Source of the DNA: an uncultured Helicobacteraceae bacterium
GTDB taxonomy: Bacteria > Campylobacterota > Campylobacteria > Campylobacterales > Helicobacteraceae
Length of the DNA stretch: 64,000 nt
Direction: 5' to 3'
Assembly: GCA_934668765.1 (NCBI GenBank)
Contig: CAKUOH010000003.1
Coordinates: 1 to 64,000, forward strand
Below the pieces are notes generated by a model. The model was given only the letters and a program-made list of their open reading frames with translations, ran no database searches and was not told where the DNA came from. Of this stretch, positions 3 to 61,663 are shown piece by piece. The translations under genes were made by a program, and so were the position numbers. Positions within the stretch are counted from its first letter, which is position 1. Each line of letters opens with the position of its first letter.

Positions 3-80
3 CAAAGGCAAAAGAGCTATTATGGCAAGGCTTGTGATTTAGGGCATCAAGGCGCGTGTAATTTGTATAATGGTATGTAG
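3..80 (+). CDS. C-terminal end of a Sel1/Hcp-like cysteine repeat protein (5' truncated by window)
   Basis: The third forward frame is open from the window edge and ends at TAG 78-80, giving about 25 residues. It contains one half-repeat of the form YYGKACDLGHQGACNLY. This is the alpha/alpha pattern of Sel1-like repeats with two Cys about eight residues apart, as in Helicobacter cysteine-rich (Hcp) proteins, which are secreted TPR-like proteins. Only the last repeat and a short tail are visible, so total length and signal peptide cannot be judged. Family assignment rests on this one repeat. Confidence 0.6.
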   Translation, partial: QRQKSYYGKACDLGHQGACNLYNGM

Positions 81-93
81 ATTCGCTTGATTT

Positions 94-224
94 GGATTGT
101 TGCTTCACTTCGTTTGCAAATTCTGCGAATTGCCACGAATCGCTAAAGCGATGCAGGGCTTGCAAACAAATCTCGCAATGACGATTCGCCTTGCCTTGTC
201 ATTGCAAACGAAGTAAAGCAATCC
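94..224. repeat. Interspersed palindromic repeat, family A
   Basis: The stretch starts with GGATTG.TTGCTTC, contains CTCGCAATGAC near 172-182 and ends with GCAATCC near 218-224. The two ends are complementary, so it can fold into a long imperfect hairpin. The same cores recur at many other gaps in this window. It fills most of the 81-327 gap; a TAAAAT-like -10 element at 290-295 lies just before gmhB. Confidence 0.75.
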
Positions 225-327
225 AAAAAAATACTTTTAGATTCACGCAATAAATCCGCGCTTTTTGTAAAAATCTAGCAACTTTTCGCTAAAATTGCAC
301 TTTTATTTTGAAGTGGAGCGTAAGCAA

Positions 328-840
328 ATGAAAAAAGCCATTTTTTTTGATAGGGACGGCGTTGTGAATGTCAATAGCGAATATGTCTATAAAATCAGCG
401 ATTTTGTGTATATGGACGGATTTGTGGAATTTTTTCGCACAATAAAAGAGCGCGGATTTTTCGCATTTGTCGTTACGAATCAATCAGGCATAAATCGCGG
501 ATTTTACAGCGAGCGCGACTTTAAGATTTTAAGTGATTTTATGCAAAATGATTTGAAGCAAAAAACGGGATTTTGCTTTGATAGAATCTATCATTGTCCG
601 CATTTACCGAATGAAAACTGCATTTGTCGAAAGCCAAAAATTGGTATGATAGAAAACGCGCTCAAAGATTTTCCCATAGATTTGGGCGCATCATATCTCA
701 TCGGCGATAATGAAAGCGACATTGAGTGCGCAATAAATGCAGGGATAAAAACGCAGATTTTGCTTACAAAAGAGCAAAAATCTAGCAAAGCCACTCATAT
801 TATTGATAATTTTCAAAAAGCACATAGTATAATTGCGTGA
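328..840 (+). CDS. gmhB: D-glycero-D-manno-heptose 1,7-bisphosphate phosphatase
   Basis: A HAD-superfamily phosphatase of about 170 residues that removes the C7 phosphate from heptose 1,7-bisphosphate in ADP-heptose synthesis (cytosol). The N-terminal nucleophile motif DRDGVVN is at residues 8-14, the second motif VVTNQSG follows, and a zinc-binding loop has the pattern CPH...CICRKP. The third motif GDNESDIE is near the C-terminus. The start at 328 is chosen because GGAG lies just upstream and the HAD motif begins right after it; an in-frame ATG at 295 would add 11 unlikely residues. It is the first gene of the heptose cluster with hldD, hldE and gmhA. Confidence 0.93.
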   Translation: MKKAIFFDRDGVVNVNSEYVYKISDFVYMDGFVEFFRTIKERGFFAFVVTNQSGINRGFYSERDFKILSDFMQNDLKQKTGFCFDRIYHCPHLPNENCICRKPKIGMIENALKDFPIDLGASYLIGDNESDIECAINAGIKTQILLTKEQKSSKATHIIDNFQKAHSIIA

Positions 841-914
841 GAATTTATGCGTGAATCTTTCAGCGATTCGCGCTTCAAACCGCGCAATTTAGGCGAAAAA
901 TGGAGGCTTGAATT

Positions 915-1919
915 ATGAAATACATTTATGATGATTTGGACGAAAAGAGCGTTTTGGTTACAGGCGGTGCGGGATTTATCGGTAGCAATTTGGTAAAATA
1001 CCTAAATAAGCACCACCCACGCGCAAAAGTCGTGGTTTTTGATAGATTCCGCGATAATAGTTGCTTTGCAAATGGGAATCCTACAAGTTTGGGGCATTTT
1101 AAGAACTTGCTTAATTTTAAGGGCGAGATTATCATCGGCGATTTGGCAAGTAGCGCGGATTTAGCAAGGCTTGATGAATATAAATTTGACTACATTTTTC
1201 ATCAAGGCGCGATTTCGGATACCACCTGCCTAAATCAAGAGCTAGTTTTGAAAACAAATTACGAAAGCTTTGAATATTTCATCAAAAAGGCAAAAAATGA
1301 CAATGCAGTGCTGATTTATGCGTCAAGTGCGGCAGTTTATGGCAATAGTCCCGCGCCAAATGTCATAGGCGTAGGCGAATCGCCTGAAAATGTCTATGGC
1401 TACTCCAAGTGGCTTATGGATAAAAAACTCCGCGATTTAATCGCAAAGAGCGAAGAAAACGATGACGATGACAATGACTTGCGAATCATAGGATTGCGCT
1501 ATTTTAATGTCTATGGCAATGGCGAGTATTTCAAAGGTAGCACGGCGTCAATGATTTTGCAGCTAATTGAACAAATCAAGGCACATAAAAAAGTGCGCCT
1601 TTTTGAGTTTGGCGAGCAAATGCGAGACTTTGTCTATGTCAAAGATGTGATTCAGGCAAATATCAAGGCAATCGAAGCGCAAAAAAGCGGGATTTACAAT
1701 GTCGGTAGTGGCAAGGCGCGAAGTTTTAATGACATTGTGGCGATTTTAAAGTCGCATTTTGGGGAATTTGAAGTGGAATACTTTAAAAATCCTTACACAT
1801 TCTACCAAAATCACACGCAAGCCGACATTAGCGAAACACAAAAAGATTTATTTTATGAGCCGAGATATTCGCTTGAAGATGGCATAAGCGATTATATCGA
1901 ATTGTTAAAAGGGTTTTAA
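915..1919 (+). CDS. hldD: ADP-L-glycero-D-manno-heptose 6-epimerase
   Basis: An SDR-type epimerase of 334 residues that converts ADP-D,D-heptose to ADP-L,D-heptose using NADP. The Rossmann glycine motif VTGGAGFIGSNL is at about residues 15-26, the catalytic YGYSK at about 161-165, and YASSAAVYG precedes it. A strong GGAGG lies 8 bases before the ATG. Its stop overlaps the hldE start by one base (TAATG), which points to coupled translation within the heptose operon. Confidence 0.95.
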   Translation: MKYIYDDLDEKSVLVTGGAGFIGSNLVKYLNKHHPRAKVVVFDRFRDNSCFANGNPTSLGHFKNLLNFKGEIIIGDLASSADLARLDEYKFDYIFHQGAISDTTCLNQELVLKTNYESFEYFIKKAKNDNAVLIYASSAAVYGNSPAPNVIGVGESPENVYGYSKWLMDKKLRDLIAKSEENDDDDNDLRIIGLRYFNVYGNGEYFKGSTASMILQLIEQIKAHKKVRLFEFGEQMRDFVYVKDVIQANIKAIEAQKSGIYNVGSGKARSFNDIVAILKSHFGEFEVEYFKNPYTFYQNHTQADISETQKDLFYEPRYSLEDGISDYIELLKGF

Positions 1920-3295
1920 TGCCACGAATCTTAATCATCGGCGATTTGATGCTAGACCACTATGTGTGGGGCAGTGTGGAGCGAATCTCCCCCGAAGCTC
2001 CCGTGCAAATCCTAAAAATCACGCACGAAAATAATCGTCTTGGTGGCGCATCTAATGTCGCACTAAATCTAATCGCACTTGGCGCAAAGGCGCATATTTG
2101 CGGGATTGTAGGCGATGATAGCGATGGAAAAATCATTGTGGATTTGTTAGATTCGGCGGAGATTGAGCGCGATTTTCTTTGCGTGAAAAGTGATTTTCAA
2201 AGTATTAAAAAGACGCGATTTATCGCTTCAAATCAGCAGGTTTTGCGCGTAGATAGGGAGAGCGTGGATATGTCGCTTGATAGCACGATTTTGGAAAAAA
2301 TCAAAGATACGCTAGATGATTTTAATGCGATTATTTTGTCTGATTACGGCAAAGGTGCGCTTGGCGTGGATTTTACAAGGCAAATCATTGCACTAGCAAA
2401 TGAGCGCAAAATGCCCATTCTCTGCGACCCAAAGGGCGATGATTATAGCAAATACGCCAACGCCACGCTTTTAACGCCAAATAAAAAAGAAGCCCAAATC
2501 GCCACAAATATCCGCATAGATTCGGCTGAAACTTTGCTAGATTCGCTAAAAAAGCTAAAAAATGATTACAATCTAACCTACGCGCTTATTACTTTGAGCG
2601 AAGATGGAATGGCGATTTATGATGACAAAATGACACAGATTCCCACTCTTGCTAAAGAAGTCTATGATGTAACGGGCGCAGGGGATACTGTGATTGCCGC
2701 ACTTGCCTTTGGAATCTGCACAAATATGGACATTTATGAAAGTGCGAAGTTTGCAAACGCTGCTGCTGCTGTGGTTGTCGGCAAAATCGGCTCAGCTCAA
2801 GCAACTCGCGCAGAGATTTTTGGTGTGATGGGCGATGAGGCACATTTAGATGATTTGGAGCTAATTGCGGATTTGAAAAAAGATGGCAAAAAAATCGTTT
2901 TTACAAATGGTTGCTTTGATATTTTGCACTTTGGGCATATTAGCTATTTGCGCAAGGCAAAGAGTTTTGGCGATATTTTGGTGGTAGGGCTAAACTCAAA
3001 TGATTCTGTGCGGAGACTAAAAGGCGATTTGCGCCCCATTAACGACGAATCTGATAGGGCGCAGATTTTGCGTGAGCTTGAATGCGTGGATTTTGTGATT
3101 ATTTTTGATAAGGATACGCCAATAGAACTTATTAAAAAGATTCGCCCTGATATTTTGGTAAAGGGTGCGGATTATAAAGGCAAAGAGGTAGTAGGCAGTG
3201 AGATTGTGAAAGATGTGCGCCTTGTGGAATTTGCAAAAGGCAGAAGCACAAGTGGCATTGTAGAAAAGATTTTAAAAACGCAAGATTCAATCTAA
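1919..3295 (+). CDS. hldE: Bifunctional heptose-7-phosphate kinase / heptose-1-phosphate adenylyltransferase
   Basis: 458 residues, the usual size for the fused enzyme. Residues 1 to about 310 form a PfkB/ribokinase domain, with GGASNVALN near the start and the ATP-binding DVTGAGDTV at about 248-256. From about residue 325 the second domain is a nucleotidyltransferase with TNGCFDILHFGH, the HxGH class signature. It performs the two steps on either side of GmhB. It is joined to hldD by a one-base overlap and followed after 18 bases by gmhA. Confidence 0.95.
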   Translation: MPRILIIGDLMLDHYVWGSVERISPEAPVQILKITHENNRLGGASNVALNLIALGAKAHICGIVGDDSDGKIIVDLLDSAEIERDFLCVKSDFQSIKKTRFIASNQQVLRVDRESVDMSLDSTILEKIKDTLDDFNAIILSDYGKGALGVDFTRQIIALANERKMPILCDPKGDDYSKYANATLLTPNKKEAQIATNIRIDSAETLLDSLKKLKNDYNLTYALITLSEDGMAIYDDKMTQIPTLAKEVYDVTGAGDTVIAALAFGICTNMDIYESAKFANAAAAVVVGKIGSAQATRAEIFGVMGDEAHLDDLELIADLKKDGKKIVFTNGCFDILHFGHISYLRKAKSFGDILVVGLNSNDSVRRLKGDLRPINDESDRAQILRELECVDFVIIFDKDTPIELIKKIRPDILVKGADYKGKEVVGSEIVKDVRLVEFAKGRSTSGIVEKILKTQDSI

Positions 3296-3313
3296 AAAAC
3301 GGAGGTTTGAAAA

Positions 3314-3880
3314 ATGAATGATTTGATTCAAGGTGAGTTTTTCTCGCATATTGACACCGCTCAAGCAGCGTTAAAGGGACTTGTAGGCGATATTGAAAAT
3401 GCTAGTGCGATAATGATAGAAGCACTAAAAAATGGCAATAAGATTATGACTTGCGGAAATGGCGGGAGTGCGGCGGATTCGCAACATTTCGCAGCGGAAT
3501 TAAGCGGACGATATTTGGAGGATAGGGACGGAATCGCGTGCATTGCGCTAACCACCGATACTTCTGCGATTACTGCAATCGGCAATGACTTTGGATTTGA
3601 GTTTATATTCTCGCGTCAAGTGGAGGCTTTGGCAAAAAAAGGCGATGTTTTACTAGCAATCTCCACAAGTGGCAACTCGCAAAATATCATCAAAGCAATC
3701 GACACCGCAAAAAGCAAGGGTTGCAAGATTATAGGTTTAAGTGGGCGCGATGGTGGGGCGATGAATGAATGCGTGGATTTAAATATTATCGTGCCAAGCT
3801 CATCAACACCACGAATCCAAGAAATGCACTTGCTAATTGAACATATTTTATGCAATATAATTGAGAGAGAATGTAAGTAA
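3314..3880 (+). CDS. gmhA: Sedoheptulose-7-phosphate isomerase
   Basis: A SIS-domain isomerase of 188 residues that converts sedoheptulose 7-phosphate to heptose 7-phosphate, the first step of ADP-heptose synthesis. Visible family motifs are CGNGGSAADSQHFAAELSGR, the phosphate-binding LAISTSGNS, and the C-terminal EMHLLIEHILC helix. GGAGG is 9 bases before the ATG. All four ADP-heptose genes are therefore together, in the order gmhB-hldD-hldE-gmhA. Confidence 0.95.
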   Translation: MNDLIQGEFFSHIDTAQAALKGLVGDIENASAIMIEALKNGNKIMTCGNGGSAADSQHFAAELSGRYLEDRDGIACIALTTDTSAITAIGNDFGFEFIFSRQVEALAKKGDVLLAISTSGNSQNIIKAIDTAKSKGCKIIGLSGRDGGAMNECVDLNIIVPSSSTPRIQEMHLLIEHILCNIIERECK

Positions 3881-42379: not shown

Positions 42380-45323
42380 TTAAAACTTCCCTGTCCTGCC
42401 ACCACTTCTTGTATTTTTCGCGCCACCTGTATCTACGCCATAGTTGCGTCTCTCATCACTTACATTGCCACGCACATAGATAAATGAGCTTGTATTCCAG
42501 CGCACATTACTATCTGCCCAATAGGCGTTATATAGCAAAAATTCAGGCATTGAGATAACCTGCCCATTTTCCATATATGAGCCGTGCAAAATGTTTAGCT
42601 TGTGCGTTCCTACGCCTAGATTTTGGTAGCTGATTTCTTGTAAGCCTTGCGTTATATTTGTTATGCCTTTTATAAAGTTATTGCTATTGCTACTTTCTAT
42701 GCGTGGAATCCTTTGGGTAATTTTATTATTATTGTTTTCGCTAAATGTCCTATCAATCCACCAACCTTGCTGTGTAGGACTTCTGTCGGCATTTGTGTAT
42801 CCTTTGCCATTATTTGCGCCCGTAATTTCTGCGACTTTATCGATATTGCAGTATTCGCATTGAAATTCATACCATACTTTCGTAGGCGTGATAGTGCTAC
42901 CTATATTGCCACTGCCATTATCGGTGTCTATGGAGTTGATTCGCGCACGAAGTATTAGCATAGGCAAGTTAGGATTTAGCCTTACATTATTATAGCTAGG
43001 ATAGTATGAATTTGCAGGTGGGAATTTAGCAAACTCCATTTTCGCTGGGATTCCATTGGCATTTTTGTCGCCTGTGAATACAGGCTCACTTTTCATATTT
43101 GGTCTAAATGGGACATCTTTATCTTTTTCTACTTTGATGATTGCCTCTGTATCAGCCACGCCGTTTTTGAAATCTGTTGATTTTACTTCGTAAGGTTTGC
43201 CATCTTTATTAAGAATCGTTACAGAAAATCCACTGCCCTGCATTCCGTCCATATTGATTAGCATATTTTCCGCAGCACAGCCACTGCTAAAAGTTTTTGC
43301 AGTGATTTTATCTCTATTAGCCGTGTCGCCTGTTTTTACTGCTGTTAAGTCTGGCGTATTTAGTGCCGTTACGCGTAGCTTTGTAGTTGCCTCCACTTCT
43401 GGCGTATTGCCCATTCCAAAATACAGCACTTTTACAGGATTGCCGTTGTTGTTTAATGCTTCGATTATGAAGTTCGCAGGGACGATTTCATACTCGAATT
43501 TTAATCGTAGCACCGTAGGATACGGACAGGGAAATGCCGATTGGTCATTGCATTTCTTTTCAGCCTTTTCCTCATCTGCTATTTTTTCATACAATGCGCG
43601 GTCATAAATATCCACACTCCCCGTAACTAGCATTGAATTCTTCTCATTTATGACTATGATAGATTGAGTATTAGCAGATAAGCCATTTGTCATAGGAATC
43701 GCCATCATAGTAGCAGGGAAACTAGGTTTTATACCTTGACAGCTACCACTTGAGCTTTGTGCAGGTGGGACAGAATCGCCATTAGCTATGGAATTTACCA
43801 CAGCCTTGAAATTTAATGCTTGCAATGAACCCAAACGATTATTTTTTGTGTTATCCACGCCTGTATCAGTCCTGCCTTCTTTGTTTTTTGCTTCAACTAT
43901 GGACATATTTACGCTCAAATTCTCGCCGATTTTTACCACAGGCTTCCTAGCCCAATTATTATTAGAGTGCGTTAATTCTTTAACGGTGTTGTTTTTGGTG
44001 GAATACTCTAGCGTAAGCGGAAGCGATATATCCTTGCCTTTTTCATCTTTGGCTTTTAGTAGATTCTCTCTTACTTCGCCTTTGTTTGATTGCGCATAAG
44101 TGCTATTTTGAAAGATTGCATCAATTTGGCTATATTGATAAGCGTGTGGCGCAGTAAAAAACTCTGTCGAAGCACTCACTTCTTTGCCATTTTTATCCGT
44201 GCCAGTGCATTTGATATTATATGTGCCACTATAAGTCGTTTGATACGAATCATTTGCAGGAAAGCGAAATGTCCCGCCACTACGCAAAAGTGAGCGAATC
44301 GCAGTGTCAGATTGCGCATTGCCACTAAAGACATTACCGCTAGGGTTGGTTATCTCACACGATAGCTTATCAAGCGAAGTAGTCAATTTACCCGCATCAT
44401 CATAAGCATAAATCTTAAAGATATAGCTATTGCCAGAGATTTTCGTATGGATTTTAGAGCCTGTCTGTCCGCTCTTACTATCCTTTCTATCTAAAATCAC
44501 CAAACTCCCAATCGGCTCGACTTCCTTATCGGGCGGATTTCCGCCATTTGGCGAGGTAGAGCGTTGTTCGCAGGGTCCGCTTCGATTTGTGCCTGTAATG
44601 TCAGTAGAGACAAATTCCGCGAATCGCACGGTTTGTCCGCCTTGATTGGTGCTATATGACCTTACATTGCCACCCTCTGGCGGTTGATAGCACATTCGCA
44701 AACCAAATTTTAAGCTTTGGCTAATATTTTGCAGTTTATTTTTGCATTGCTCTTTGGTATCCGTCTCAGTGCATTTGGGTTTATAATAATACCTTGCGCC
44801 TGTTGTATCATTATCACAAAAGCTAACATCGGAGAGTTCTTTGCCTGTTTGCTTATCTACGCATTTAGCAAGTTTAAGCCATTCATTTTCCGCGCCATAT
44901 TTCGTATCTCTTTCAAGTGCGCAGTAGAAGTAAGTCTCCACAGGTGTCCCGCGTCCTACACCATAGCTAAATACATGGCAGTCGGTATTACAGCCACCAT
45001 TAGGGCGACATTCGGTAATATGGCAATTTTTGCTTGCAGCAGTTTCGGAGGCGGAATCAACTTTATTGCTTAAGCTCCAATCCCAATCTTTAGAGCAATT
45101 TTTTGGGGGTAATTTAGGCAAACAATACTCTGCGATACCGCTCCACCTACTATCATTTTTCGCGGTGCTTAAGGTATGCCCAATATTTGCAAAGCAACGA
45201 TAATGCTTACCACTTATAAAAGTTTGGTTTGTCCCCTCGCCTTCAGGGCGACTACCTGCAAAAGCATCGGGGGGGGGGGAATCCAAATAAAATCAAAAAA
45301 ATAAAGAAATTAAATAAACGCAT
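42380..45323 (-). CDS. Large cysteine-containing secreted/surface protein, probably phase-variable (currently out of frame at a C tract)
   Basis: About 980 residues if in frame. From ATG 45323 (AAGGAG upstream) the first codons read MRLFNFFIFLILFGF, then a run of 11 C. With 11 C the frame ends soon after; with 10 C it would enter the long frame as PPPDAFA|GS, which completes a signal peptide with an AFA cleavage site. The long frame itself opens at a TTG (45286) without Shine-Dalgarno. The mature part has many Cys in the first 250 residues, an Ig/Big-like stretch near 280-400, and beta-rich modules to the C-terminus. I recognise no family. The protein is probably exported and surface-linked. 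Confidence 0.75.
45269..45279. repeat. Homopolymeric tract G11 (C11 on the coding strand)
   Basis: Eleven G on the plus strand, within the signal-peptide region of the 42380-45323 gene, 14 codons after its ATG. Ten or thirteen C would put start and long frame together. Such tracts vary by slippage in Helicobacter and Campylobacter contingency genes. Confidence 0.85.
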
Positions 45324-45436
45324 TTTTCACTCCTTATCTTAAATAAAATGCGACATTATATCTTTTTTTTTTGATAAACGCAATAAATTTTAAATAAATT
45401 TGGGGAAAATTTTTGGATTTTTTTGGATTCAAATCA

Positions 45437-45584: not shown

Positions 45585-45616
45585 ACGACTTTATTTTAAC
45601 TTACAAGGAGAGAGTG

Positions 45617-46159
45617 ATGAAAACAATCACAAAATTAGCATTTGGCGCGGTAATGGGACTTTTGGTAATGAGTGGATGTGGAACTAGCAATGTAGCTACG
45701 GACAATGCAGAAATCAATGCTGCATTAGATGGCGCACCTGAATGGGTTTTGGGGGAGACTAGCGGTTTAAGTGCAAGTGGTAGCGCAAAAATTAAAAGCA
45801 ATAACATTAGCTTTGCCGTTACACAAGCAGAAGCGGACGCTAGAAACAAACTAGCAGGGCAAATCGCTACACAGGTTGAAAGTAAATTAAGGACGCTAAT
45901 AACTAGCACAAGCGATAGCGTAAGCGAAGAGACCGTTCAAGCGATTCGCCAAAGTGTAAGTCAAGTCATAGCTGGCTCAAAATCCACTAAAAAATGGATT
46001 AGCAAAACAAATGATATGTGGGTTTTGGTGGAAGTTAAAGAGCTAAATACAAGTTTGCTTGAAAAAAATCTAGCAAAAGCAAAGGGCGTGGATAAAGCAG
46101 CGGCAAAGGCGTTGGCAAAATCTGTCGATGAGCTAATTGACGGATTTAAAAATGATTAG
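45617..46159 (+). CDS. lpp20: LPP20 family lipoprotein
   Basis: 180 residues. Lipoprotein signal with lipobox LVMSGC, then an LPP20 domain: GAPEWVLGE, ASGSAKIKSNNISFAVTQAEADARNKLAGQI and WVLVEVKE. Similar in size and motifs to Lpp20 of Helicobacter pylori, an outer-membrane surface lipoprotein. Start 45617 rather than the GTG at 45614, with AAGGAG upstream. Followed by a second LPP20-type gene. Confidence 0.9.
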   Translation: MKTITKLAFGAVMGLLVMSGCGTSNVATDNAEINAALDGAPEWVLGETSGLSASGSAKIKSNNISFAVTQAEADARNKLAGQIATQVESKLRTLITSTSDSVSEETVQAIRQSVSQVIAGSKSTKKWISKTNDMWVLVEVKELNTSLLEKNLAKAKGVDKAAAKALAKSVDELIDGFKND

Positions 46160-46179
46160 ATTTTAGGGCGTTTGAAGCG

Positions 46180-47136
46180 ATGATAGCAAAAAAGATGATT
46201 AGGAAAATCCTGCCATTTTTGGCGCAGGTGGCGATTTTGGGCGTTGCGCTAATTTTTAGCGCGTGCGGTGGCATTGGCGGGAATTACCCTGATTGGTATT
46301 TGGATAATGACGAAGATTCAAGCTATCTTTATGGCGTGGGCGATGGCGAGACGCTAAATATGGCAAAAAGCGCGGCTTTAAATGACTTAAGCTCACAAAT
46401 CTCCACACGAATCGAATCTGTCGTTACAATCGAGCAAAGCCAAATCGATGAAAGGCAAAGCACTAGGGCGGATTCTAAAATCGACTTGAGCGTTTTAGAT
46501 ATTCAGCTTGATAGCATTGAATACATATTGCAAGAGGAAATTGAGGGGCATTTTTTTGTCAAGGCGCGAATCGAAAAGGCAAAAATCATTAGTCAAATAA
46601 ATAACGACATTGATAACATAAATATTGATGTTAATTCGATTTTAGGCGAGATAAAGGCAATGAAATGCGCTACCATTTCTCCGCAAAATAAAAGGACGCT
46701 AATAAGGCTCTATAATAAAGCATTGCGAAAGGCAAATCAAGTCTATGCGCTAGATGGCAAGGTAACTAGCCAAAAAACGCTAGATGGCGTTCGCACGGTA
46801 GTATCGCAGCCATCACGCGCCTACTACTCAGCATTTGCAAATGGCGGTAAAAAGGGCGATTACGCAAAAATAAATAGCGGACTTACGGCGGAATACAAGA
46901 AATTTTTTAGCCTTGAGGCGCAGGGCAAGGATAAATTTGTGATTGAGAATGAATATGGCATTTCAATCGGCAAAGATTCTCTTATACGAATCACGCTAAA
47001 TGCAAGTATCAAGGACTGCGTGGGCAATACGATTTTTGATACATCGCTAGTCGGCAAGGATTCGACTTATGCGGGTGCGTTAAATAGGCTAAAGGTGCAG
47101 TTGTATAAAAAGCTAAAAGTGTGGCAAGATTCGTAA
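46180..47136 (+). CDS. Second LPP20-domain lipoprotein
   Basis: 318 residues. Lipobox ALIFSAC at about residues 23-29, then YPDWYLDN...YLYGVGDGETLNMAKSAALNDLSSQISTRI, the LPP20-type start, followed by an extra C-terminal domain of about 150 residues with VYALDGKVTSQKTL. Likely an outer-membrane partner of the preceding protein; role unknown. Starts 20 bases after it. Confidence 0.82.
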   Translation: MIAKKMIRKILPFLAQVAILGVALIFSACGGIGGNYPDWYLDNDEDSSYLYGVGDGETLNMAKSAALNDLSSQISTRIESVVTIEQSQIDERQSTRADSKIDLSVLDIQLDSIEYILQEEIEGHFFVKARIEKAKIISQINNDIDNINIDVNSILGEIKAMKCATISPQNKRTLIRLYNKALRKANQVYALDGKVTSQKTLDGVRTVVSQPSRAYYSAFANGGKKGDYAKINSGLTAEYKKFFSLEAQGKDKFVIENEYGISIGKDSLIRITLNASIKDCVGNTIFDTSLVGKDSTYAGALNRLKVQLYKKLKVWQDS

Positions 47137-47440: not shown

Positions 47441-48484
47441 AAATATAATTTCCCAAAATATGCGCAATTTGGTAGCTCCATTACCACAGGGCTTGGCGCG
47501 TTAAATGCAAATATCGATGGCAAAAGGCTAGCAGTGGCGCATATATCTTTTAATCTCATTACCGTGCTTATTGCGGTGATTTTATATGAGCCGTTTTTGT
47601 GGGCTACAAATATCTCATCAAATGCACTTGGAATCGAAAATATAAATCTTAAAGTTGCAATGTTTCTTACGATTTTCAATGTCCTTCGTATCGGGCTTAT
47701 GATACCATATTCAAAGAAATTTGTGTATTATCTTGTGCGCTTTATCAAAGAGCGCAAAAGTGGCGATTTGGATAGCCCGATTTATTTAGATGAATCCAAA
47801 GTCGAGTTTGCAAATGCTTCGCTAGAGGGGATTCGCAATGAAACAAAGCATTTATATGACAATGCACTAGGCATTATTTCACGAAGCATTGGCTTTGATA
47901 GAGAGAGGATTCGCTCTTTTGAACCCATTGAAAATTTACTGAAAAACAAAAAGCGACTAAAAGATGAAATCGATATAGATTCGCTTTATGAATCCAAAGT
48001 CAATGCACTTTCAAATGCCATTATGGAATTTACCGCACGAGCAAAAACGCGTATGGGCGATGAAAATCAAATGAAAGAAGTCTTTGCCCTGCAAATGTCT
48101 GGGAAATGTATCGTGGAGGCAACACAGCAAATGCGCCTAGTGCAAAAGAATTTGCAAAAATATTCGCTCTCACGCAATGAATCGCTATCAAACGAATATA
48201 ATCAAATGCGCGGAACAATGGCAAATTTGCTTCGTGCTATGGAGGAATTGCGCATTACAGATATTGAAGAAAATATGCAGGTTGCCAAAAATAAAATCGC
48301 TAAATATAAGGCGTTTTTCAAATACGATGATTTTGATATTATCAACAAAATTGACGCGCTTGTATCAAGCAAAGCCATAAGCATTGCGGAGGGCACTTCA
48401 ATGCTAAATGATTTAAGCTTTATGCGACAAATTGCCATTTCGCTTGTGGAAGCTATCGGTTATCTTTATGGCGTGAAAATTTAG
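47441..48484 (+). pseudogene. 5'-truncated copy of the Na/Pi cotransporter-PhoU gene
   Basis: The frame is open from 47441. From about 47462 it matches the second half of the intact neighbour (48673-50406): AQFGSSITTGLGALNANIDGKRLAVAHI, then the last helices and the whole cytosolic PhoU-like helical domain to the C-terminus. The first 240 residues with the transport helices are missing, and a GTG at 47534 is the only start. Several stretches of over 40 bases are identical to the intact copy while others differ, which points to gene conversion. Whether a short protein with the PhoU domain is still made is unknown. Confidence 0.8.
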
Positions 48485-48672: not shown

Positions 48673-50406
48673 ATGCAAAAGGCAATCATTCCCATAGCAA
48701 TCCTTGCGCTATGCTATATATTCTACAAATTCAGTGCGACTATTGAAATCATCTCTGGCGCGGCAATGTTCCTTTTTGGAATGCTTGTAATGCAAGATGG
48801 ATTCAAAATGTTAAGTGGCGGTTTTTTGGAAAAAATGATGAAATCCGTTACAGGTAATACCTTTAAAAGTATCGTCTTTGGCGCGGTTTCTACAACGGTA
48901 ATGCAAAGCTCTACGCTCGTATCGCTCTTTGCGATTTCATTTGTGAGTGCTGGAATCATCTCACTTCTGCAAGGCGTGGGAATTATTTTTGGGAGCAATT
49001 TGGGCAATAGCACGGGCGCGTGGCTAATTGCAGCCATTGGCAATAAGGCAAATATATCAGCATTTGCGCTCCCTATCATCGCATTTGGCGTAATTTTCAT
49101 TTTCTACAAACTCAAAGCTGTCAAAGGATTTGGCTATGTTTTGGCAGGAATTGGCTTTATATTTTTAGGAATCGCCTACATAAAAACGGGCTTTGATAAA
49201 TACAGCGAAATCATTGACTTTGGCAAATACAATATCGCTGGAATCAAAGGAATGGTTGTATTTATGGGCGTGGGACTTTTGGCAACACTTATTATGCAAT
49301 CTACTCACGCCACGCTAGTGCTAATTATGGCAGCATTAAGCACAGGGCAAATCGACCTTGGCAATGGTATGGCACTCACAATCGGCGCACAGCTAGGTAG
49401 CTCCATTACCACAGGGCTTGGAGCGTTAAATGCGAGTATTGATGGCAAAAGGCTAGCAGTGGCACATATCGCCTTTAACACGCTAACCGCGGCAGTGGCG
49501 ATAATCTTTTACATTCCCATACAAGAAGTCGTAGAGCTAATCGCCAAAGCCGTAGGAATCGAAAATATCAATTATAAAATTGCGATTTTTCACACGCTAT
49601 TTAACTGCCTTGGAATCGCCCTTATGCTCCCTATATTAAAGAAATTTGTCTATTATCTTATCAAATTTATTGCCGTGCGAAAAAGTGGCGATTTGGATAG
49701 CCCGATTTATTTAGACCCATCAAAAATCGACTTTGCAAACGCTTCGCTAGATGCGATTCGCAATGAAACAAAACATTTATATGACAATACGCTAGGCATT
49801 ATAAGCCATAGCATTGGTTTTGATAGGGGACAGATTCGCTCTTTTGAGCCGATTGACAATTTGCTAAAAAATAAAAAATTGCTAAAAGATGAAATCGATA
49901 TTGACGCGCTTTATGAATCCAAAGTCAAATCGCTTTCAAATGCCATAATGGAATTTACCGCGAGTGCCAAAACGCATATGGGTAAAGAAGAGCAGATGAA
50001 AGAAGTCTATGCCCTGCAAATGGCAAGCAAAAGCATTGTCGATGCGGCAAAGCAAGTGCAGCTAGTCTATAACAATCTTAAAAAATATTCACTCTCTGAA
50101 AATAAAGTTCTATCCGATGAATATAGCAAAATGCGCGGAACTTTGGCAAAACTCTTGCGAAGTATTGAAGAGCTGCGAATCACAGATAGCGAAGAAAACG
50201 CTCAAATTGTGAAAAAAATCGCCAAATACAAGGCATTTTTCAATTATGATGATTTTGATATTATCAACAAAATTGACGCGCTTGTATCAAACAAATCCAT
50301 TAGCATTGCGGAGGGCACTTCAATGCTAAATGATTTAAGCTTTATGCGCCGAATCGCGCTATCGTTGGTAGAAGCGATTGATTATCTTTATGGCGTGGAA
50401 GTGTAA
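48673..50406 (+). CDS. Na/Pi cotransporter II family protein with C-terminal PhoU-like domain
   Basis: 577 residues. About nine helices with the two QSS-type repeats of the family (VMQSSTLVSLFAISFV; IMQSTHATLVLIMAA) and GAQLGSSITTGLGAL, then a helical PhoU-like domain from about residue 340 to the end. It probably imports phosphate with Na+ and self-regulates through the PhoU-like part. A truncated copy lies directly upstream in the same direction. A terminator follows. Confidence 0.9.
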   Translation: MQKAIIPIAILALCYIFYKFSATIEIISGAAMFLFGMLVMQDGFKMLSGGFLEKMMKSVTGNTFKSIVFGAVSTTVMQSSTLVSLFAISFVSAGIISLLQGVGIIFGSNLGNSTGAWLIAAIGNKANISAFALPIIAFGVIFIFYKLKAVKGFGYVLAGIGFIFLGIAYIKTGFDKYSEIIDFGKYNIAGIKGMVVFMGVGLLATLIMQSTHATLVLIMAALSTGQIDLGNGMALTIGAQLGSSITTGLGALNASIDGKRLAVAHIAFNTLTAAVAIIFYIPIQEVVELIAKAVGIENINYKIAIFHTLFNCLGIALMLPILKKFVYYLIKFIAVRKSGDLDSPIYLDPSKIDFANASLDAIRNETKHLYDNTLGIISHSIGFDRGQIRSFEPIDNLLKNKKLLKDEIDIDALYESKVKSLSNAIMEFTASAKTHMGKEEQMKEVYALQMASKSIVDAAKQVQLVYNNLKKYSLSENKVLSDEYSKMRGTLAKLLRSIEELRITDSEENAQIVKKIAKYKAFFNYDDFDIINKIDALVSNKSISIAEGTSMLNDLSFMRRIALSLVEAIDYLYGVEV

Positions 50407-58806: not shown

Positions 58807-58815
58807 GGGGGGGGG
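58807..58815. repeat. G9 tract in the promoter region of a two-gene unit
   Basis: Nine G directly followed by TAAAATACAAT (-10 candidates TAAAAT 58816-58821 and TACAAT 58821-58826), about 36-44 bases before the start codon at 58851. Slippage would alter the -35/-10 spacing and so could switch expression. Confidence 0.75.
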
Positions 58816-58850: not shown

Positions 58851-59960
58851 ATGCAAAGCAATAATTCAAACAAAAATGACAATAACTACAAAGCACAATG
58901 TGAATCTTTTATCAAAGAATGGCTAGGCAAAAATACTTTTCATAAATGCGAAACCATTGCTTTGGAAAACTACGAAGAGCGTAATGTTGAGTTTAAAGCC
59001 AAAGTTTGCAATGTATTTAAAATAGAAATCATAAAAAAGAAAAATGTGGCACAGATAAACGCATTTACAAACAACCTTAAACACAATAAACCACAATTTA
59101 AAGATGAGACATTTTATACAAGGCAGGATTACGAATTTGCATTAAAGAAAAATCTCGCTATTGCAAATGAAGTAGGTTTTCAAAAGCTATTTAATAGAAT
59201 AAAAGATGGCGATTTTGGCATATTTAAAAAAGAATGTTATTTTTATATAGATGAAGCACGAATCACATATCAATATAAATGCCATAAATGCAATGGGTTA
59301 GGGCATTTGCGATGTGAGTGCAAAAATGGCAAGGTAAAATGTGGCTCTTATGGCTGCAAAAATGGCAGGATTAGACGCACTCAAAGCAAAAGCGGTTCGC
59401 CATTATTTTTTGTGAATACGCGTGTATCATCAAACTTTAATGTCGCACTGCCACTTTTACACAACAAAAAAGAGCAGGTATATTATGATGATTGCGATAA
59501 TTGTCAAGGCACAGGATTGCAAACCTGCTCTAAATGCAATGGCAGTGCTATATTAAAGTGCGGTGCGTGTGATGGCAGTGGATTGCAATATGAAGTTGTA
59601 ATTTTTGCGTGTAGCACGAATCCAAAATACAATTTTATCTACCCTGAAAATATCAATAAAAAAGAACGCAAAATCTTAAAAAACATAAATAATTTGCCTA
59701 AAATAGCGCATTTTGTGCGAGAATCTATCGAATCACAAAATAACACAATCTTTGAAAAATACAAAATTTCCGTGCCTTTTGCGACATTTAGCACGACTAC
59801 AAATGGCAAAAACAGCGATTGGACTCTCTATGGCAAAAATATAAAGATTTTTAAGAAAAATATTTTTGCATTTAAAAAGTATGTGATTTTCGGTGGTATT
59901 TTTGTGCTTATCGTTGTTTGCGCCATCGCGTGTATATTATGGCTAAAATATATAAAATAA
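58851..59960 (+). CDS. Uncharacterised tail-anchored protein with DnaJ-like Cys fingers
   Basis: 369 residues. No J domain. Residues 144-171 and 215-244 hold CxxC pairs of the DnaJ zinc-finger form (CHKCNGLG, CECKNGKVKC, CDNCQGTG, CSKCNG, CGACDGSG), probably binding two or more zinc ions. One membrane helix at the extreme C-terminus (VIFGGIFVLIVVCAIACILWL) anchors it. No known family matches the rest. AAAGGGC precedes the ATG. It ends 12 bases before the next gene, which makes the pair a likely operon behind a G9 tract. Confidence 0.8.
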   Translation: MQSNNSNKNDNNYKAQCESFIKEWLGKNTFHKCETIALENYEERNVEFKAKVCNVFKIEIIKKKNVAQINAFTNNLKHNKPQFKDETFYTRQDYEFALKKNLAIANEVGFQKLFNRIKDGDFGIFKKECYFYIDEARITYQYKCHKCNGLGHLRCECKNGKVKCGSYGCKNGRIRRTQSKSGSPLFFVNTRVSSNFNVALPLLHNKKEQVYYDDCDNCQGTGLQTCSKCNGSAILKCGACDGSGLQYEVVIFACSTNPKYNFIYPENINKKERKILKNINNLPKIAHFVRESIESQNNTIFEKYKISVPFATFSTTTNGKNSDWTLYGKNIKIFKKNIFAFKKYVIFGGIFVLIVVCAIACILWLKYIK

Positions 59961-59971
59961 AGGATTTAACA

Positions 59972-61663
59972 ATGCAAAATTTAGAAAATAATGATTTTAT
60001 TCATAGTGAAACTTTAAGCGCATTCTTATCGCGTGAAAAACTCCAAAAAATAGATGGCAAATACAAGCCAAATCATAATCAGCTTAAAAGTCTCGTGTGC
60101 TATGATGAAGTGAATCTAGGCGAGATTGATACAAGCGAAATCACAAGTTTTAGAGAGCTATTTAAAAACTCCACTAGGCGCGATTTTAGCGGGATAGATT
60201 CTTGGGATACAAGCAAAGTAACGACATTTATGAGTTGCTTTGAAAATGCCGTGTATTTTAATGAAAATATTAACGCGTGGAATGTTAGCAATGGCACAAA
60301 CTTTATGCAAATGTTTTATAATGCAAAGTCCTTTAATCAGCCACTTGATGGCTGGAAAATGAGCAGTGCGACAAATACCATTAGAATGTTTTTTCAAGCA
60401 AAAGAGTTTAATCAAAACATAGAATCTTGGGATATGTCTAATGTCGTTTGGGCGTGGGAAATGTTTCGTGGGGCAGAGAATTTTAATAGCCCACTAAATA
60501 AATGGAATGTCTCTAGCGTAACCAAAATGCAGGGAATGTTTCTTTACGCTAAATCTTTTAATCAGTCGCTTGATAAATGGAATGTCGGCAATGTAGTGGA
60601 TATGCAGGGGATTTTTAGCGGAGCGCAATCTTTCAATCAAAACTTAAGCGCGTGGGGCGACAAACTAGGCAAAGTGCGCAATGCCAAAAGGGCATTTGCC
60701 GATACCAAATCGCTAACAAAAGATTTTTTGAAGGATTGGAAATTTTCTAGTTTTTGCGATAAAGAAAATATCATCAAAGGTAGCGCATTAGAGGCTAAAA
60801 CAACAAGCACCGCAACAAAAAGTAAAAATCTTTATAATTTTGCCATTAGTCAAATTAACAAAAAAGAGATTCCAAACAAAATAAGGACATTTGAATCTAA
60901 CACATTTAAGGAATCTTATATTAAATGGCTACCCAAAAATATCAAAGATGAAACTAAAATCTATCTAGCAAAGTGCGATGAAAACGACAATCTAATAAGT
61001 GGCGATGAAAAATCGTGGGATTTTGCTTATTATGAAATTTTTAATCGTTATTTTATGATAGAAAAGTATGAATCAAGCAACCAAAGCAATGAAATTCAAT
61101 TAGAAAATCCTGCTTTTTACATTATCCAAAAGCGTAAAATTAGTGATTTGCAAAAAGATGAAAATTTTAGAGCAGATGAAGTCAAAGATATTTATGAAAG
61201 CAGTGATTTAAGCATAAAAATAGATTCACAAAATATGTGGATAGCAAATAGTGATTTGACAGATAATAGTGAGGCTATTTTGGGATTGCTAAATATTTTC
61301 ATATTAGCACAAAGCTACATAATTCAAATGCAAACGCTAGAAGAAATAGCGCGCGACAATAGCGACAATTCAAAAGAACTGCAAAAATGCTATAAAAAAA
61401 TATGCGAATTTGACTTGCGACATTACCGAAATCAACCCATTTTACAAAATACATTTTTGCAACATATTTGGCAAAAAATCTCTGCGGTTTATATGGTGGC
61501 ACAAACACACGATGAGTTAAAAGAAGTTATCACGCAAATGGCTGGGCTTGTAAATGAGCGCAAACAAACGCTATTTAATTGGCTTATGTTTGCGGTGGCG
61601 GTATTTTCCGCGCTTGGTGCGATTTTGGCTGCGATTCCTGTGGTGGAAAAGTGGGTAAATTAG
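59972..61663 (+). CDS. DUF285 (BspA-type) repeat protein with C-terminal membrane helix
   Basis: 563 residues. Residues about 61-240 are seven repeats of 25 residues with the pattern MFxxAxxFNQxLxxWNVSxVT, the DUF285 repeat known from Mycoplasma and Campylobacterota surface or effector proteins. A middle domain (about 270-450) is unknown; the last 110 residues are helical and end in one membrane segment (LMFAVAVFSALGAILAAI). No signal peptide, so the repeats are probably cytosolic unless exported another way. Start 59972 has AGGA upstream; the frame from 59918 overlaps the previous gene. Confidence 0.8.
   Translation: MQNLENNDFIHSETLSAFLSREKLQKIDGKYKPNHNQLKSLVCYDEVNLGEIDTSEITSFRELFKNSTRRDFSGIDSWDTSKVTTFMSCFENAVYFNENINAWNVSNGTNFMQMFYNAKSFNQPLDGWKMSSATNTIRMFFQAKEFNQNIESWDMSNVVWAWEMFRGAENFNSPLNKWNVSSVTKMQGMFLYAKSFNQSLDKWNVGNVVDMQGIFSGAQSFNQNLSAWGDKLGKVRNAKRAFADTKSLTKDFLKDWKFSSFCDKENIIKGSALEAKTTSTATKSKNLYNFAISQINKKEIPNKIRTFESNTFKESYIKWLPKNIKDETKIYLAKCDENDNLISGDEKSWDFAYYEIFNRYFMIEKYESSNQSNEIQLENPAFYIIQKRKISDLQKDENFRADEVKDIYESSDLSIKIDSQNMWIANSDLTDNSEAILGLLNIFILAQSYIIQMQTLEEIARDNSDNSKELQKCYKKICEFDLRHYRNQPILQNTFLQHIWQKISAVYMVAQTHDELKEVITQMAGLVNERKQTLFNWLMFAVAVFSALGAILAAIPVVEKWVN

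What the first reader, a model, noticed from the sequence alone, without database searches (positions are those of the whole stretch)
45269..45323. C11 tract switches a large secreted protein on or off
An ATG with AAGGAG and a hydrophobic start lies out of frame with a reading frame of 968 codons only because the tract has 11 C. Ten or thirteen C would restore a complete signal peptide with an AFA cleavage site. This is the hallmark of a phase-variable surface antigen.
Basis: partly seen in the sequence, partly recalled or inferred. Interest (0 to 1): 0.85.

Follow-up and report, generated by a model that had tools for sequence, protein, structure and literature searches.

The report
C-tract switch in exported-protein signal peptide
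A run of eleven Cs inside the export signal of a large, little-known secreted protein of a Helicobacter-like bacterium puts the gene out of frame here, while a near-identical public copy is in frame, so this looks like a random on/off switch of a kind known from other bacterial surface proteins.

Summary
Observation confirmed. A C11 run on the minus strand (45269-45279) separates a well-placed start (ATG 45323-45321, AAGGAG six bases upstream) from a 968-codon open frame; as it stands the ATG frame ends after 23 aa. About 0.001 G or C runs of 11 or more are expected. A public relative, P0002 (980 aa), starts with the same 15 residues, reads through PPP into DAFAG, and matches the rest at 940 of 962 positions without gaps. 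So, on the sequences as deposited, in-frame and out-of-frame copies of one gene exist; variation within a clone was not testable. 36 of 38 homologs have a hydrophobic N-terminus, so export looks like a family trait. The protein has a Cys-rich N-domain without a PDB match, an Ig-like domain, and a C-terminal half distantly like DUF6701 (suggestive only). Of 121 genomes of the same family as L001 (Helicobacteraceae by its title), 5 hold this family or a sister family. Best reading: a translational phase switch, like oipA or pilC, of a new exported, adhesin-like protein. New member of a known kind.

The parts
45355..45360 (-). TATAAT, probable -10 element
   Evidence: sequence; not reported as part of a -35/-10 pair by the consensus scan
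45363..45372 (-). A10 run two bases upstream of the -10 element; possible second tract
   Evidence: not beyond chance (3.3 A runs and 3.4 T runs of 10 or more expected in the window, one run in all seen)
45330..45335 (-). AAGGAG Shine-Dalgarno, six bases before ATG
45321..45323 (-). ATG start of the signal-peptide frame
   Evidence: same first 15 residues as P0002
45280..45323 (-). first part of the signal peptide, MRLFNFFIFLILFGF; its 15th codon takes the first C of the tract
   Evidence: hydropathy of the same stretch in P0002
45269..45279 (-). C11 homopolymer tract
45252..45254 (-). stop that ends the ATG frame after 23 aa as the sequence stands
42380..45268 (-). body of the exported protein (962 codons and a stop after the tract): end of the signal peptide, Cys-rich N-domain, Ig-like and C-terminal beta-rich parts
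45284..45286 (-). TTG, formal start of the 968-codon frame, without Shine-Dalgarno

Best explanation
A simple-sequence contingency locus with translational control. The gene is transcribed from its own promoter and ribosomes start at ATG 45323. Slippage of the C run during replication changes its length; depending on the frame, translation either ends within two dozen codons (the state in this window) or continues through a complete Sec signal peptide into a roughly 960-residue exported, Cys-rich, multi-domain beta protein, most likely a surface- or pilus-associated adhesin-like protein. Shown: tract, start signals, out-of-frame state here, an in-frame public copy, hydrophobic N-terminus in nearly all homologs. 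Inferred: promoter, slippage as the cause, reversibility, surface location, adhesion.
For: Run far beyond chance and placed between a good start and a long conserved frame. P0002: first 15 residues identical, PPP, then 940 of 962 identical without a gap. FPPP written wholly as TTC and CCC would be rare by codon use (TTC 0.14 of Phe, CCC 0.24 of Pro in 19 chosen window ORFs; product about 0.002). 36 of 38 homologs carry a hydrophobic stretch near the N-terminus, against 0 of 39 interior stretches (residues 300-370) at the same threshold. The frame after the tract is conserved to its last residues in the 39 rows of A1. G or C runs of 10 or more occur in 120 of 120 genomes searched of the same family as L001 (counts there overlap and no chance expectation was computed). 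The same arrangement is in print: oipA CT repeats in the signal-peptide region (PMC10564699, passages), sabA repeats in the 5' coding region and promoter (PMC2715451, passages), pilC homopolymer tracts in the reading frame (PMC5953494, passages).
Against: No reads and no DNA of sister strains: P0002's tract is inferred from its protein. The gene copies with DNA (G001, G112, G114, G115) and the sister-family copies show no G/C run of 7 or more in the 13 loci scanned, so the tract is a trait of this lineage, not of the family; a G10 run lies about 2.8 kb upstream of the gene in G112 (L025), outside it. In H. mustelae only 2 of 12 intragenic tracts varied in shotgun reads (PMC2846917, passage), so a tract does not prove variation. 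No homolog of known function was found.
Confidence: 0.8

Rival explanations
1. Sequencing or assembly miscounted the homopolymer, and the gene is in frame and constantly expressed in this organism.
For: Long homopolymers are error-prone (recalled); the one close relative seen, P0002, is in frame.
Against: A C run of this length is itself exceptional and would be expected to be unstable in any case; A/T runs of 10 or more are rarer than the same model expects in this window.
Confidence: 0.1
2. The gene is a pseudogene fixed in the off state.
For: Out of frame here; tracts can prove static (PMC2846917, passage).
Against: 962 codons stay open after the tract, 940 of them identical in residue to P0002, with no second lesion; start, Shine-Dalgarno and leader are intact.
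Confidence: 0.06
3. Translation starts at TTG 45286 and gives an unexported protein, alone or beside the exported one.
For: The 968-codon frame formally begins there.
Against: No Shine-Dalgarno before it; the next in-frame start within the first 100 codons is TTG 45121. A hydrophobic N-terminus is the family norm (36 of 38), and the first 270 residues hold 14 Cys, which suits an oxidising place.
Confidence: 0.03
4. Polymerase or ribosome slippage on the C run makes some in-frame product without any DNA change. This is not exclusive of the main reading.
For: Homopolymer runs can slip during expression (recalled).
Against: For sabA the authors held in-frame transcripts from an out-of-frame CT repeat unlikely to matter (PMC2715451, passage); that is a dinucleotide repeat and concerns transcripts only.
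Confidence: 0.05

Closest known systems
Neisseria PilC (pilC1/pilC2)
   Same: Homopolymer tract in the reading frame (text: polyC; table: G 9-20) that switches a large pilus-associated protein on and off (PMC5953494, passages). That the tract lies in the signal-peptide region is recalled, not read.
   Different: No PilC/PilY1 match in Pfam at E up to 1; the protein here is another family, and no pilus link is shown.
Helicobacter pylori OipA and SabA
   Same: oipA: CT repeat in the signal-peptide region sets the frame by slipped-strand mispairing (PMC10564699, passages). [quoted passage not shown]
   Different: Dinucleotide repeat there, C run here. Those are Hop-type beta-barrel proteins (recalled); this protein has no such Pfam match.
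DUF6701 proteins (PF20419), including MshQ (that link is recalled)
   Same: Distant profile similarity of the C-terminal half, aligned at the F..xCxA.N and F.NG.A motifs, and through an intermediate family. MshQ is called a putative MSHA adhesin (PMC7096442, passage).
   Different: No Pfam hit for the window protein or the 39 alignment members; no prepilin motif near it. The passages seen say nothing of phase variation of mshQ.

Membership tests
Simple-sequence contingency (phase-variable) locus | Repeat tract longer than chance in a coding or promoter region | tested here: met
Simple-sequence contingency (phase-variable) locus | Tract length sets the reading frame between the start and the gene body | tested here: met
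Simple-sequence contingency (phase-variable) locus | Natural variation between copies of the same gene | tested here: inconclusive
   P0002 is in frame through PPP, the window is not; only protein, not DNA, was seen for P0002
Simple-sequence contingency (phase-variable) locus | Reversible variation within a clone | not testable with these tools
   no reads or colonies
DUF6701 / MshQ | Pfam PF20419 match over its cut-off | tested here: not met
   no hit at E up to 1; 0 of 39 alignment members at E up to 0.01
DUF6701 / MshQ | Remote homology of the C-terminal region | tested here: inconclusive
   hhalign probability 94 against 4 sequences, 62 against 35; bridge family of 3 sequences 98.8 and 96.9
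DUF6701 / MshQ | Neighbouring prepilin genes | tested here: not met
   no prepilin motif (recalled pattern) among ORFs of 90 aa or more in the window, L001, L024 or L025
PilC / PilY1 | PilC domain in Pfam | tested here: not met
   no such hit at E up to 1
H. pylori Hop outer-membrane proteins | Hop beta-barrel domain in Pfam | tested here: not met
   no such hit at E up to 1
Autotransporters | C-terminal autotransporter beta-barrel domain in Pfam | tested here: not met
   no such hit at E up to 1

The most novel reading that the evidence does not exclude
Some Helicobacteraceae have a new family of exported adhesins: a new-fold, Cys-rich receptor-binding N-domain on an MshQ-like stem that docks on a pilus or pseudopilus. 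One lineage has put it under a C-run switch in the signal peptide, arriving independently at the PilC design.
Probability: 0.2. Interest if true: 0.65.

Novelty: new member of a known kind. Interest (0 to 1): 0.45.

Why it matters
It brings to light a large exported protein family (38 homologs found; no Pfam family over its cut-off for the window protein, and no NCBIfam match) in little-known Helicobacteraceae, and suggests that at least one lineage controls it by a frame switch. On/off control of this sort often marks proteins under changing selection by host, phage or immunity (recalled). The N-domain, confidently modelled but without a match in the PDB, is a good target for structure work.

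Tried and rejected
Co-occurrence with a type II secretion/type IV pilus platform (PF00482): a first sample looked perfect (5 of 5 with, 0 of 7 without the gene), but over all 121 genomes it is 86 of 121, i.e. 5 of 5 against 81 of 116, so it says nothing; the hits may be the CtsDEF-type system described for H. mustelae (PMC2846917, passage). Of the 5 genomes, G001, G112 and G115 have the family proper, G114 a copy cut by a contig end, and G113 only the sister family A3; in the first four the profile match begins only at position 174 to 234 of 915, so their N-domain is too divergent to be matched by this profile.

Promoter A10 as a second tract: not beyond chance. Poly-G tracts in homologs: many have Gly runs after the signal peptide, and P0007, P0009 and P0020 have GGG just before the likely start, but no DNA of them was available. 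PF20419 in the five related genomes: 0 of 5, but the control rang in 0 of 14 as well, so no conclusion. Viral contigs: 24 pattern matches, none a relative. Genome contigs: 53 pattern matches, 1 relative (L001). PHROGs: one match at E 0.26. PDB by sequence: none at E up to 1. Pfam Filamin on the window protein lies below its cut-off (19.1 against 26.9 bits). N-domain alone against proteins: 6 hits, all of them already among the 38.

Paper searches: 'MshQ or DUF6701' gave 192 papers, of which the 20 listed were clinical papers, most of them with a questionnaire of that name; MshQ with MSHA and pilus 22 papers, 12 listed; DUF6701 alone 0; Helicobacter with type II secretion, type IV pili and enterohepatic 0. 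Passages were seen in six papers (PMC2715451, PMC7096442, PMC5953494, PMC2846917, PMC10564699, PMC3960869); the others are listings only.

Rows dropped: P0014, P0036, P0037 and P0038 were left out of alignment A5 (34 of 38 homologs used).

Full report
What is there. On the minus strand the sequence reads, in order: a TATAAT element (45360-45355), AAGGAG (45335-45330), ATG (45323-45321), a hydrophobic leader of 15 codons, eleven C (45279-45269; the first belongs to the 15th codon), and then a long open frame to 42380. The run is the longest G/C run of the window. A first-order model expects 0.0007 G runs and 0.00025 C runs of 11 or more; of 9 or more, two are seen (the other at 58807) and 0.027 expected. 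In the same window A/T runs of 10 or more are fewer than the same model expects (one against about 6.7).

Frame. From the ATG as it stands, translation gives 23 residues and stops at 45254-45252; the body lies in another frame, whose only starts within the first 100 codons are TTG 45286 and TTG 45121, the former without a Shine-Dalgarno-like sequence. The next gene downstream, asd, is convergent, so the gene appears to be transcribed alone.

A public in-frame copy. A search of 5.8 billion proteins gave 38 homologs. The nearest, P0002 (980 aa; listed with 57 member sequences, of which only the representative was seen), begins with the same 15 residues as the leader here, continues through PPP to DAFAG, and matches the body at 940 of 962 positions without a gap. 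The leader and the body thus belong together, and the two sequences as deposited show two frame states of one gene. The DNA of P0002 was not seen, nor switching in a clone.

Export is a family trait. 36 of 38 homologs have an 11-residue stretch of mean hydropathy 1.8 or more near the N-terminus (a threshold of my choice); the exceptions are P0004 (1.75) and P0014, which lacks the N-terminus. None of 39 interior stretches reaches that value. By a loose pattern 33 of 38 have a possible x-Ala cleavage site after it. The C run lies in the last part of the signal peptide, where P0003 (70% identical) has GFSSAFAS instead of GFPPPDAFAG, so the tract looks like an acquisition of this lineage. Phe-Pro-Pro-Pro written as TTC CCC CCC CCC would have a probability near 0.002 from codon use in 19 ORFs of the window.

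Where it occurs. The alignment finds the family or its sister in 5 of 121 genomes of the same family as L001 (Helicobacteraceae by the title of L001). In a sample of 398 genomes of the order it finds two of these again and weak matches in 4 others. One homolog is named, from Helicobacter sp. MIT 14-3879 (P0037). The window's purB is closest (79%) to three of the five genomes (G115, G001, G113); the other two gave only distant purB matches. So the window comes from the neighbourhood of that group. A platform gene of type II secretion or type IV pili is present in 86 of 121 genomes, 5 of 5 with the family or sister and 81 of 116 without, which is no association.

Mechanism. The best explanation is slipped-strand change of the C run with translational on/off control at the signal peptide. 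Comparable systems were seen in passages: oipA (PMC10564699), sabA (PMC2715451), pilC (PMC5953494). Caution comes from H. mustelae, where only 2 of 12 intragenic tracts varied in shotgun reads (PMC2846917, passage). Rivals are a homopolymer miscount, a fixed pseudogene, and start at the TTG; none can be excluded without reads, but each is less likely.

Verdict. The switch is a new member of a known kind; the protein family, above all its N-domain, is the newer part.

Noticed in passing
58807-58815 (+): G9 run 35 bases upstream of ATG 58851 and just before a TACAAT element; the next gene (59918-61663) has three DUF285 stretches (BspA-like leucine-rich repeats, recalled). Possible second, promoter-type contingency tract.
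   Followed up: partly
47534-48484 (+): Partial duplicate of the Na/Pi cotransporter gene 48673-50406: 72% identical to its residues 263-577, without the first 262 residues.
   Followed up: partly
45614-47136 (+): Two LPP20-type lipoprotein genes in tandem, divergent from the switch gene; the first also has a below-cut-off match to Tip-alpha, the second passes the cut-off of the HP1454-like C-terminal domain.
   Followed up: partly
P0007, P0009, P0020 (homologs): Predicted N-termini extend upstream of the likely start with a GGG triplet, and many homologs have Gly runs right after the signal peptide; these may hide poly-G tracts at the DNA level.
   Followed up: no
L003, L007, L008: A second family of exported-looking proteins of about 620 aa in three of the five genomes, related to both this protein and DUF6701 by profile.
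   Followed up: partly
L025:3467-3476: G10 run about 2.8 kb upstream of the family's gene in G112; the gene it lies in or near was not examined.
   Followed up: no
family C-termini: AKNTR near the end is invariant in the 39 rows of A1, and each row ends in F or Y; many DUF6701-like proteins also end in a short conserved tail (INW or VKxFR), as if the C-terminus were a docking or sorting signal.
   Followed up: no
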